From a virus, in IMG/VR virus record IMGVR_UViG_3300028392_000082, positions 1 to 53,747 of that record: 53,747 bases of DNA. The stretch is one strand, 5' to 3'. A model generated the notes under the pieces. The model had not been told where the DNA came from and searched no databases. It saw only the letters and a program-made list of their open reading frames with translations. The position numbers and the translations under genes are program-made. Shown here one piece after another: positions 1,294-20,743 of the stretch. How positions within the stretch are numbered: position 1 is the stretch's first letter; each line of letters starts with the position of its first letter.

Positions 1294-1310
1294 ATATTTA
1301 ATTTTTAAAG

Positions 1311-1381
1311 TTGCCCCTCAAGGATTCGAACCTCAACAAACTGTACCAAAAACAGTCGTACTACCGTTATACTAAAGGGCA
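1311..1381 (-). tRNA. tRNA-Gln (UUG)
   Basis: A 71-nt cloverleaf. Acceptor TGCCCTT pairs with AGGGGCA (one G-U), and the discriminator is A. The D-arm is GTA...TAC. The anticodon stem is ACTGT/ACAGT with loop TTTTGGT, giving anticodon TTG at loop positions 34-36. The T-loop is TTCGAAT. CCA is not encoded, so it must be added by host enzyme. It reads CAA/CAG glutamine codons. Confidence 0.93.
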
Positions 1382-1422: not shown

Positions 1423-1492
1423 GTTTTATCCACTTTGGTAAAAGGCCTACTCTGTGCGCCCTGATCGCGGGAAGGGGAGTAAACGTCTTTTG

Positions 1493-1579
1493 CGGAAAGA
1501 CAGGGATTCGAACCCCAGATACAGTTTCCCGTATTCTTGTTTTCAAGACAAGTGCATTAAGCCTCTCTGCCATCTTTCC
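1493..1579 (-). tRNA. tRNA-Ser (UGA)
   Basis: An 87-nt type-II tRNA. Acceptor GGAAAGA pairs with TCTTTCC, and the discriminator is G as in serine tRNAs. The anticodon stem is CTTGT/ACAAG with loop CTTGAAA, giving anticodon TGA. A long variable arm (ATAC...GTAT) follows, then a T-loop TTCGAAT. CCA is not encoded. It reads UCA serine codons. Its 5' end directly abuts the 3' end of the large structured RNA, so maturation may free both. Confidence 0.94.
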
Positions 1580-2249: not shown

Positions 2250-2651
2250 TTATGCTTTGTACATTTTAATTCGATACAATTTGAATTGCTTGTCTTTTGG
2301 ATTGATAAGAATATCTATACGCTTTTTCCAACGTTTGTTCATTAGGTCTTTGACCACATAAACTCCGCTGTACTTTCCTGCGCCCACAATTCTTACCTTT
2401 TGTCCGAACTTAAATTTTTTATTTAAGTCCCTACTAACTGCTATAATTCTGTGCTTCTTCGGATTGTTTTCTGTTAACCTCATTCCGGTTGCAGTCACAT
2501 CTCCATTAGGATCGTTTTTAAATTCGTTCACCTTGTAAGTGGTGACAGTTACGAATTCAACGCTACTCTTTTTATGAGGCACGAACTTCTTACCCGCTTT
2601 TATGGGGCTTGAAGCCAATACACTTATTAAAATAATACTAATCCATTTCAT
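2250..2651 (-). CDS. Secreted 3D-domain protein (putative cell-wall hydrolase)
   Basis: A 133-residue protein. The start at 2651 (MKWIS...) is chosen over an upstream in-frame ATG because that extension runs into the tmRNA; the start also carries the GTTATG context. An N-terminal signal peptide (about residues 1-19) precedes a domain with the pattern of 3D/MltA-type double-psi barrels: VTATGMRL, then RIIAVSRDL, KFGQKVRI, and VVKDLMNKRWKKRIDI with the late Asp residues. Family members cleave or bind peptidoglycan, so a lysis or envelope role is likely. It lies between the tmRNA and the large ncRNA. Confidence 0.7.
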   Translation of the reverse strand: MKWISIILISVLASSPIKAGKKFVPHKKSSVEFVTVTTYKVNEFKNDPNGDVTATGMRLTENNPKKHRIIAVSRDLNKKFKFGQKVRIVGAGKYSGVYVVKDLMNKRWKKRIDILINPKDKQFKLYRIKMYKA

Positions 2652-2666
2652 AACCTTTATTTTTTG

Positions 2667-3069
2667 TGGAGCATATGGGACTCGAACCCATGTCTCCGTA
2701 ATGAACAATAATACCAACGTCTCACACGCTTAGATCTGTTTTTATTCTGATCAGTAAGGGTCGTATGGTTTTTGGTCCTTACGATATCCACCACTTGGTT
2801 TTATGACTACCAAGAAACTCCCAGAAGGAGCAGAGCTATAATACTGAGACTATAGCGGGGTTTTCACTTCTTTTTAAAGTCCCATGAGTGATACGGGATG
2901 CGACTAAGCAGCGTATGCGTACTCGTCAGCACCGATGAAACTCATAAGAGAATCAAAGGTCATAGTAGATAATTCTACAGTTATTGTTTCGTAAGGTTTT
3001 AAGGACTTATCTTACTTTGTCCGCGTGTGGTATTACCTCCGAATTACGGATCAATTCCAAGGATGCCCC
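2667..3069 (-). ncRNA. ssrA: Phage-encoded tmRNA (transfer-messenger RNA)
   Basis: A 403-nt RNA. The tRNA-like ends pair as GGGGCAT (3063-3069) with ATGCTCC (one G-U), preceded by a T-arm ATGGG-TTCGAGT-CCCAT; discriminator A; no CCA encoded. A long P2-type helix CACACGC/GCGTGTG joins the tRNA-like domain to the body. The mRNA-like part encodes GADEYAYAA followed by TAG (2904-2933). The 3' part has hairpin and pseudoknot-like pairings (GCTATA/TATAGC, CTTGG/CCAAG, GTAAGG/CCTTAC with TCGT/ACGA). The role is to rescue stalled ribosomes by trans-translation, with host SmpB. The only odd feature is the tag end AYAA in place of the common ALAA. Confidence 0.92.
2904..2933 (-). other. tmRNA tag reading frame (GADEYAYAA)
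   Basis: Codons GGT GCT GAC GAG TAC GCA TAC GCT GCT TAG. The resume codon is inferred to be GGT because Bacteroidota tags usually start with Gly. A frame open further upstream means the exact resume point is not fixed by sequence alone. E. coli tags end YALAA; here the third residue from the end is Tyr. Confidence 0.8.
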
Positions 3070-3078
3070 ATGTGAATA

Positions 3079-3088
3079 TATAAATATA
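3079..3088 (-). promoter_or_regulatory. Candidate tmRNA promoter element (TATATTTATA)
   Basis: On the coding strand TATATTTATA ends about 10 nt before the 5' end of the tmRNA, at -10 element spacing. It resembles the Bacteroidota -7 box TAnnTTTG with the last base changed. The same core recurs upstream of many genes here. Confidence 0.45.
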
Positions 3089-19117: not shown

Positions 19118-20743
19118 TTACATTCCCATACCCATACCCATCATTGGGTCTTGAGTTTTTTCTTCTTTGTCTTTCTTTTCGAATACAACTGATTCTGTGG
19201 TTAGAATAGTTCCTGCTACAGAAGCTGCGTTTCTAAGCGCTGTGATAACGACTTTGGCTGGATCAATAATACCTGCGTCTAAAGCATTAACAATCTTGTG
19301 ATTCTTGGCATCGTACACTTCACCTTCGTTAGGAATTTTAGTGTACCAATCTTGAATTCCTGCATTTTCTAAGATCTTCTTGAATGGACTTTGAATCGCT
19401 TTCTGAACAATTCCATAAGCAATAGCATCGTGGATAGTCTCTTCTGGATGATGTTGAATAGACGCTTGGAATAAAGCTGAACCTCCGCCTGCTACTATAC
19501 CATCAGCTAACGCTGCTTTAGTTGCATATAAAGCGTCTTCTACTCTATCTTTCTTTTCTTTAATTTCAATATCAGAATTACCGCCTACGCTAATGATTGC
19601 AACACCTCCGACTAGTTTACCTAATCTCTCTTGTAATTTCTCTTTCTCATAGAATGAAGTAGATTTATCTATTTGATCTTTAATCTCTTCCGCTCTTGCT
19701 TGTAACTTAACTTCTTCGCCTTTACCGTCAATAATGGTGGTTTCATCTTTAGATACTGTTACTAATCTAGCTTTACCCAATACTTGAGAAACTTGTTGAG
19801 TAGTTAATTTATCTAATTTGTGACCTTTGTCTTTAGATAGCAATTCTGCGCCTGTTAAGATCGCAATATCTTCTAAGATCAAAGTTTTTCTTTCGCCAAA
19901 ATCTGGTGCTTTAACTGCGCAAACTTGAACGATGCCTCTCATTTTATTTACAATCAAAGTAGCTAATGCTTCGTCTCCGATATCTTCTGCAACAATTAAC
20001 AACGGTTTATTCTCAGAATTTACTTTCGCTAATACTTGCAATAACTCTTGGGCTGTTGAAATTCTACCATCAAATAAGAAGATGTAAGGATCTTCCAATA
20101 CAGCTTGCATACTCGTATTGTTAGTTACGAAGTAAGGAGATTTGTATCCGCGATCGAATTGCATACCTTCAACAACCTCTAAACTGGTTTCACCTGATTT
20201 AGATTCTTCGATTGTAATAACTCCTTCGCGACCAACTTTCTCTACTGCAGAAGCAATCAAGTTACCAATTTCTGGATCGTTGTTGCCTGAAATTGTAGCG
20301 ACTTGTTTAATTTGTTCTTCTGATTCGATATCAATAGCGATTGTCTTAATATATTCGATAACCTGTTTAACTGTTTTATCGATTGCATTTTTAATCTCTA
20401 CTGCGTTAGAACCTTGACGAATTTCTTTTAAACCTTCTCTTACCATTTCTGTTGCCAATAAAGTGGAAGTAGTTGTACCGTCACCAGCTTCGATAGCCGA
20501 CTTAATACTAACTTGCTTTACTAACTGAGCTCCTAAATCTTCGATGTCGTCTTCTAGCTTATGAAAAGCTTTTGCGACAGTTACGCCGTCTTTAGTTACT
20601 TTAACTTCCCCGTTTTGTTCTCTAATCAAAACAGTTCTACCGCCGGGTCCCAATGTTGATGACACCGCTTGGTTTAGTTTTTCTATACCGGAAAGTAACT
20701 TCTCTTTAAGTTCTGTTCCGTTTATGTTTTTTGTTGTACTCAT
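19118..20743 (-). CDS. groL: GroEL chaperonin (complete)
   Basis: 541 residues, full length for GroEL. Signature LGPGGRTV, catalytic D52 in KDGVTVAK, D88 in AGDGTTTST, the apical-domain GVITIEES, C-terminal DAGIIDPAKV and the Gly-Met tail (MMGMGMGM) are all present. It encloses and folds proteins in an ATP-driven cage, probably phage structural or enzymatic proteins under heavy expression. It sits 1 nt downstream of GroES, as in bacterial groESL operons. No inactivating change is seen. A full-length phage groESL pair is rare. Confidence 0.96.
   Translation of the reverse strand: MSTTKNINGTELKEKLLSGIEKLNQAVSSTLGPGGRTVLIREQNGEVKVTKDGVTVAKAFHKLEDDIEDLGAQLVKQVSIKSAIEAGDGTTTSTLLATEMVREGLKEIRQGSNAVEIKNAIDKTVKQVIEYIKTIAIDIESEEQIKQVATISGNNDPEIGNLIASAVEKVGREGVITIEESKSGETSLEVVEGMQFDRGYKSPYFVTNNTSMQAVLEDPYIFLFDGRISTAQELLQVLAKVNSENKPLLIVAEDIGDEALATLIVNKMRGIVQVCAVKAPDFGERKTLILEDIAILTGAELLSKDKGHKLDKLTTQQVSQVLGKARLVTVSKDETTIIDGKGEEVKLQARAEEIKDQIDKSTSFYEKEKLQERLGKLVGGVAIISVGGNSDIEIKEKKDRVEDALYATKAALADGIVAGGGSALFQASIQHHPEETIHDAIAYGIVQKAIQSPFKKILENAGIQDWYTKIPNEGEVYDAKNHKIVNALDAGIIDPAKVVITALRNAASVAGTILTTESVVFEKKDKEEKTQDPMMGMGMGM

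What the first reader, a model, noticed from the sequence alone, without database searches (positions are those of the whole stretch)
2667..3069. Complete phage-encoded tmRNA with tag GADEYAYAA
Seen: tRNA-like ends, T-arm, P2-type helix, tag frame and pseudoknot-like pairings. Knowledge: tmRNA is a host gene, and phage copies are known in few groups such as cluster C mycobacteriophages. The end YAA differs from the LAA that ClpXP recognises best. Inference: a phage tmRNA that rescues ribosomes while changing the fate of tagged proteins.
Basis: partly seen in the sequence, partly recalled or inferred. Interest (0 to 1): 0.92.

Follow-up and report, generated by a model that had tools for sequence, protein, structure and literature searches.

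The report
Phage ribosome-rescue RNA, unusually long tag
A virus of Flavobacterium-like bacteria carries its own copy of the RNA that frees stuck ribosomes, and together with many uncultured relatives it encodes a 24-residue protein tag, more than twice the usual length, which standard software cuts down to its last 8 residues in this virus.

Summary
The tmRNA is real. It lies on the minus strand (2667-3069; ARAGORN and Rfam RF00023 E=1.7e-21) beside two tRNA genes, in a 53.7 kb fragment of a myovirus related to Flavobacterium phage immuto. The tag was misread. GADEYAYAA is only the C-terminal part: the resume site, 12 nt after pseudoknot 1, starts a 24-codon tag, VELSTMTFDSLMSFIGADEYAYAA. In 43 distinct sequences the upstream 15 codons show pN/pS 0.24 in this frame, against 1.4 and 2.0 in the other two, which contain stops. 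Ninety viral loci (35 distinct tags) share this extension with variable ends (YAVAA, YALAA, EYALAA, EYAYAA), and a second long-tag type (25-27 aa) occurs in the same RNA clade. Bacteroidota host tags are 8-11 aa. ADEYAYAA occurs in 0 of 84,980 bacterial and archaeal genomes; phage and host tmRNAs form separate clades. No SmpB was found in 24 relatives, so the host's is presumably used. Phage tmRNAs as such are known (402 phages; PMC9004378), and mycobacteriophage ET08 (Bxz1 species) also has a 25-aa tag. Verdict: a new variant of a known kind, whose conserved tag extension has no known function.

The parts
2667..3069 (-). tmRNA gene (ssrA), mature body of 403 nt; CCA not encoded
   Evidence: ARAGORN 2666-3069; RF00023 E=1.7e-21; sequence shows ACAA after the acceptor stem
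3063..3069 (-). P1 acceptor stem, 5' strand GGGGCAT, with the G of the G3-U70 alanine identity pair
   Evidence: G3-U70 in 88 of 88 relatives across 13 acceptor-stem versions; 37 of 37
2668..2674 (-). P1 acceptor stem, 3' strand ATGCTCC
   Evidence: 92.8% of cells paired, 4 pairs with changes on both sides
2675..2691 (-). T arm (ATGGG TTCGAGT CCCAT)
   Evidence: 100% paired, 4 of 5 pairs with compensatory changes
3023..3049 (-). P2, 5' strands (CCGTAAT, GGTAATACCACACGC)
   Evidence: helices 2-4
2696..2729 (-). P2, 3' strands, including the conserved CTAAGCGTGTG region
2991..3022 (-). Pseudoknot 1 (GGAC/GTCC and GTAAG/CTTAC)
   Evidence: covariation in helices 5-7
2979..2990 (-). 12-nt linker GAAACAATAACT upstream of the resume codon (the AATAACT context seen in host tmRNAs before GGC)
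   Evidence: resume codon 12 nt after PK1 as in E. coli (PMC2481249)
2907..2978 (-). Tag reading frame, 24 codons VELSTMTFDSLMSFIGADEYAYAA; resume codon GTA at 2976-2978
   Evidence: frame-specific purifying selection; 90 loci with 20-25 aa tags
2931..2978 (-).
   Evidence: pN/pS 0.24 over the 15-codon core, no stops in 43 distinct sequences
2907..2930 (-). ADEYAYAA, C-terminal host-like degron part of the tag
   Evidence: same tag in 8 other viral contigs, 0 bacterial or archaeal genomes
2904..2906 (-). TAG stop codon of the tag frame
2864..2898 (-). Pseudoknot 2 candidate (TCCC/GGGA and TCACT/AGTGA)
   Evidence: 53-58% of cells paired on a gapped alignment, so supported for part of the family only
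3080..3088 (-). TATATTTAT, candidate Bacteroidota-type -7 promoter element before the tmRNA
   Evidence: similar TATATTTG/TATATTTAC boxes before the tmRNA in relatives; inferred, not tested
1492..1579 (-). tRNA-Ser (TGA), neighbour in the same RNA gene cluster
1310..1381 (-). tRNA-Gln (TTG), neighbour in the same RNA gene cluster

Best explanation
This is a functional phage ssrA gene. Its RNA would be processed at both ends, given CCA by the host enzyme, charged with alanine through G3-U70, bound by host SmpB, and enter ribosomes stalled on broken or non-stop messages during infection. The ribosome would then switch to the resume codon GTA, 12 nt after pseudoknot 1, and add a 24-residue tag (VELSTMTFDSLMSFIG plus the host-like degron ADEYAYAA), release at TAG, and leave the tagged fragment to host tail-specific proteases. 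The phage thereby keeps ribosomes cycling when host supply or message quality falls. The conserved extension probably adds a docking or unfolding site for the protease or an adaptor. Shown by sequence: gene, structure, resume position and coding constraint on the long tag. Inferred: charging, SmpB use, rescue, degradation and the extension's role.
For: tmRNA models; covariation of P1, P2, PK1 and T arm, 279 double-changed cells against 106 in shuffles and 36-74 in slid controls; G3-U70 88/88 and resume codon at nt 89-98; frame-specific purifying selection on the extension; 35 distinct long tags in 90 loci; host context AATAACT|GGC against phage AATAACT|GTA or GAC; length changes near the resume site are whole codons; the internal Met is Trp in L121, L122, L141, L153, so it is not an AUG start; ARAGORN itself-27 aa tags in several relatives; no SmpB in 24 relatives.
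Against: No expression, charging or tagging data. No cultured phage in 50,697 records was found with the long tag, so there is no isolate to test. The window's encoded end lacks CCA. PK2 and later pseudoknots vary and were only partly resolved. The closest isolate, immuto, lacks a tmRNA, so the gene is dispensable in this phage group.
Confidence: 0.8

Rival explanations
1. One reading: the tag is GADEYAYAA, of host-like length, and the Y in place of L weakens ClpXP recognition, so tagged proteins survive.
For: ARAGORN gives ADEYAYAA for the window; G..EYA.AA resembles the host tag GENNYALAA, which starts with G.
Against: The resume determinants sit 45-48 nt further upstream, directly before GTA; the upstream codons show pN/pS 0.24 in frame and no stops; the third residue from the end varies freely in the family.
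Confidence: 0.07
2. The upstream frame is not part of the tag but a separate small ORF, or is conserved as RNA structure.
For: An ATG lies inside STMTF; some of the region could pair in the MFE fold.
Against: The Met is replaced by Trp or Phe in several members; there is no stop between this frame and the degron; third codon positions vary most (entropy 0.84 against 0.38 and 0.22, permutation p=0.001), which is a protein signature.
Confidence: 0.05
3. The long tag is not a plain degradation signal: the extension hides or overrides the degron, or redirects tagged proteins to a phage-chosen fate (another protease, an adaptor, or stability).
For: The extension is conserved while the last residues vary, including ends such as LAIA and EATFA; some relatives carry a ClpP-family gene (6 of 24); mycobacteriophage ET08 has an equally long tag ending in ALV.
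Against: Most members keep YAVAA, YALAA or EYALAA ends, which look like normal degrons; the ClpP-like genes are absent from most relatives and resemble head maturation proteases as much as ClpP.
Confidence: 0.25
4. A captured host gene carried as a decaying passenger, or a prophage attachment-site relic.
For: Prophages can pick up ssrA fragments, since ssrA is a used integration site (PMC9004378, PMC3029335).
Against: All 78 phage tmRNAs form one clade apart from 30 Bacteroidota tmRNAs; the structure and tag frame are kept across the family; it sits beside tRNA genes in a myovirus fragment.
Confidence: 0.03

Closest known systems
Standard one-piece bacterial tmRNA (Rfam RF00023), Bacteroidota type with tag GENNYALAA
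   Same: Alanine acceptor stem with G3-U70, T arm, P2, pseudoknot 1, AATAAC(T) resume context, tag ending in -AA
   Different: 24-codon rather than 8-11-codon tag, with a conserved block between the resume site and the host-like degron; low model score (61-80 bits against mostly 111-206 in the hosts listed); separate clade
Cluster C1 mycobacteriophage tmRNA (ET08, species Bxz1)
   Same: Phage-encoded one-piece tmRNA in a tRNA cluster of a large phage; 25-aa tag ATDTDATVTDAEIEAFFAEEAAALV; a Phe about 9-11 residues from the C-terminus
   Different: Unrelated host phylum; tag sequence not alignable apart from the Phe; ends ALV rather than AA; placed outside the phage clade described here
Phage Melnitz and SAR11 phage tmRNAs (PMC9004378)
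   Same: Phage-encoded ssrA in large marine myophages
   Different: Two-piece, circularly permuted, linked to a glutamine riboswitch
Huge-phage tmRNAs (PMC7162821)
   Same: Large phages of many ecosystems carrying tmRNA
   Different: SmpB is reported among those huge-phage genes; tag length is not discussed in the passages read

Membership tests
tmRNA (RF00023) | Covariance model match over the full length above the curated cut-off | tested here: met
   61.1 bits against 47, positions 1-374; 64-80 bits in 7 relatives
tmRNA (RF00023) | Alanine-type acceptor stem with G3-U70 and a T arm | tested here: met
   88 of 88 with G3-U70; T arm 100% paired
tmRNA (RF00023) | Pseudoknot 1 followed about 12 nt later by a resume codon opening a tag frame with a stop | tested here: met
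   spacing rule from PMC2481249
tmRNA (RF00023) | Further pseudoknots PK2-PK4 | tested here: inconclusive
   PK2 supported in part of the family; PK3 and PK4 not resolved
tmRNA (RF00023) | Short tag, most often 10 aa (typical, not a strict criterion of the family) | tested here: not met
   24 aa here, 20-27 aa in the family; 10 aa is the commonest length in a database of 97,179 sequences (PMC11915505)
tmRNA (RF00023) | Alanylation, SmpB binding and tagging of stalled products | not testable with these tools
   needs experiment
Bxz1-type long-tag phage tmRNA | Long tag (about 25 aa) in a phage tmRNA | tested here: met
Bxz1-type long-tag phage tmRNA | Common descent with the mycobacteriophage gene | tested here: not met
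   ET08 falls outside the phage clade and groups with hosts (host + ET08 clade support 0.975); midpoint-rooted tree of a short RNA, so modest weight

The most novel reading that the evidence does not exclude
Large phages of Bacteroidota have a distinct tmRNA lineage whose tag carries a second, conserved signal in front of the degron, so that products of stalled translation in the infected cell are handled differently (faster, by another protease or adaptor, or spared) from those tagged by the host; long tags arose independently in mycobacteriophages for the same reason.
Probability: 0.35. Interest if true: 0.78.

Novelty: new variant of a known kind. Interest (0 to 1): 0.56.

Why it matters
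Why phages carry their own tmRNA is an open question, and a common guess is upkeep of the hijacked translation machinery. Here a large phage clade keeps, under purifying selection, a tag extension that the presumed hosts lack, which points to a function of the tag itself and makes the question testable with reporters. It also shows that automatic annotation (ARAGORN) truncates some of these tags, so long phage tags are probably under-reported.

Tried and rejected
Bacterial or archaeal genome with the same tag: none in 84,980, while the host tag pattern rang at once. Extended-tag pattern in 399 genomes of the Flavobacterium family: none. Cultured phages with the tag or a similar tmRNA: only T-arm-sized matches. 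SmpB in relatives: none. ClpP as a dedicated partner: in 6 of 24 relatives only, and ambiguous with head maturation protease. Amphipathic helix in the extension: hydrophobic moment not above shuffles. Pairwise identity of phage and host tmRNAs with free gaps was uninformative, so a tree was used. A tblastn search with the Bxz1-type tag found nothing although ET08 in the same collection carries it, so the negative peptide searches are weak on their own; the DNA searches support them. Internal-ATG ORF: rejected because the Met is not conserved.

Full report
Observation. ARAGORN finds one tmRNA in the window, on the minus strand at 2666-3069, next to tRNA-Ser(TGA) and tRNA-Gln(TTG). Rfam's tmRNA model matches over its full length at 61.1 bits, E=1.7e-21.

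Where it is. The window is a linear IMG/VR record of 53,747 bases. It encodes a contractile tail sheath, a DnaB helicase, DNA polymerase A, ribonucleotide reductase and GroEL. The closest isolates are the Flavobacterium phages immuto (160 kb): sheath 52% and GroEL 55% identical. Immuto itself has no tmRNA. The host is therefore inferred to be a flavobacterium or near relative.

The tag is longer than reported. Eight other viral contigs carry the tag ADEYAYAA, and aligning seven of them with the window showed that the frame stays open and alike upstream. ARAGORN itself reads 24-aa tags in L004, L006 and L008, the tmRNA of L004 being 94% identical to the window's. In the window, pseudoknot 1 ends with CUUAC, followed by the 12-nt linker GAAACAAUAACU and then GUA. 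In E. coli the resume codon lies 12 nt downstream of pseudoknot 1 and is set by the five bases before it, with A86 nearly invariant (PMC2481249). Bacteroidota host tmRNAs have the same kind of context directly before their first codon, for example AATAACT|GGC GAA. The resume codon is therefore GUA and the tag is VELSTMTFDSLMSFIGADEYAYAA.

Test of the long tag. Two further scans of viral contigs gave 115 and 65 stretches. Ninety loci with a recognisable core gave 35 distinct tags of 20-25 aa. In the 15-codon core upstream of the degron, 43 distinct DNA sequences have pN/pS 0.24 in the tag frame, 1.44 and 2.04 in the other frames, no stop in frame against 43 and 19 sequences with stops in the others, and most variation at third positions (permutation p=0.001). 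Length differences near the resume site are whole codons. The internal methionine is tryptophan in several members, so it is not an independent start. Thirteen further loci from the same scans were read by eye; together with others they show a second tag type of 25-27 aa, such as ADKTSRQEIGASIINMAFANAPVALAA, and its members that could be placed fall in the same RNA clade.

The RNA is under structural constraint. With the named structure (P1, P2, PK1, PK2, T arm) on 37 relatives, 86.9% of cells pair, with 279 cells changed on both sides against 106 in shuffles and 36-74 in slid controls. G3-U70 is present in 88 of 88. PK2 is supported only in part of the family, and PK3 and PK4 were not resolved.

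Origin. The tag ADEYAYAA occurs in none of 84,980 bacterial and archaeal genomes, while the tag GENNYALAA gave at least 120 loci in the same collection, nearly all Bacteroidota. In 30 tmRNAs drawn from the phylum, ARAGORN tags are 8-11 aa. None of 399 genomes of the Flavobacterium family has the extended pattern. In a tree of 274 columns, 78 phage tmRNAs form one clade (support 0.73) and 30 host tmRNAs another (0.99). This is an old phage lineage, not a recent host transfer. Of 24 relatives' contigs, 15 carry a sheath related to the window's (50-79% identity for the main match), so most belong to one broad clade of myoviruses.

How it most likely works. No SmpB gene was found in 24 relatives (the records may be fragments), so the host's SmpB presumably serves. 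The RNA would rescue ribosomes stalled during infection and add the 24-aa tag. The last residues are host-like (G-A-N-E-Y-A-L-A-A in some members against host G-E-N-N-Y-A-L-A-A), so degradation by host tail-specific proteases is the default expectation. The extension is kept under purifying selection and must do something; a docking or unfolding aid for the protease or an adaptor is the simplest idea, and a changed fate is the main rival. An amphipathic helix is not supported. ClpP-family genes occur in 6 of 24 relatives but may be head maturation proteases.

What is known. Phage tmRNAs are not rare: 402 of 18,146 phage genomes (PMC9004378), with further reports in huge phages (PMC7162821) and mycobacteriophages (PMC4131195). 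The commonest tag length in a database of 97,179 curated tmRNAs is 10 aa (PMC11915505). A long phage tag has a precedent: ET08 of the Bxz1 species encodes ATDTDATVTDAEIEAFFAEEAAALV, 25 aa. None of the papers found and read in eight searches describes the tag family reported here; most subscription papers and preprints were not searchable.

Verdict. The thing is a new variant of a known kind: a phage tmRNA lineage with a conserved tag extension of unknown function. The YAA argument carries little weight, since that residue drifts within the family.

Noticed in passing
3080-3088 (minus) and relatives L010, L121, L122, L128, L148: A Bacteroidota-type promoter box (TATATTTG or TATATTTAC, often with TTTGG upstream) lies just before the tmRNA in many relatives; other relatives share AGTTCTTTAAnnTAT directly before the first G instead.
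   Followed up: partly
L119, L120, L123, L129, L131, L136, L142, L143, L146, L149, L151, L154, L155: A second long-tag type (for example DNKIARQEEGASIINMAFANVAMAA and DANKQARIAEGEAILASIFSSVAVAA), with a Phe usually 10 (sometimes 8) residues from the C-terminus, as in the first type (10-11).
   Followed up: partly
L027, L032, L106 (tags ending ADLAIA), L056, L060 (ADEATFA), L102 (ADYE): A few family members have tags that do not end in Ala-Ala; L102 ends in Glu and may be damaged or changed in fate.
   Followed up: no
L309 (1480-2016) and L310 (1465-2007): Stand-alone ClpP-family genes beside glycosyltransferases in contigs of relatives; 6 of 24 contigs carry one, one of them two.
   Followed up: partly
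19118-20743 (minus): Phage-encoded GroEL, 55% identical to that of Flavobacterium phage immuto.
   Followed up: no
2250-2651 (minus): A small gene of 133 aa with a signal-like N-terminus starts a few bases after the tmRNA and may be co-transcribed; no Pfam match.
   Followed up: partly
L278 1430-1876 (crAssphage cr60_1): The annotated tmRNA has an odd layout (a T-loop sequence near its 5' part and a 3' end overlapping tRNA-Leu), and ARAGORN marks it with an asterisk; it may be permuted or misannotated.
   Followed up: no
L219 (MAG named Limnohabitans): A contig binned as a betaproteobacterium carries the Bacteroidota tag GENNYALAA; probably mis-binned.
   Followed up: no
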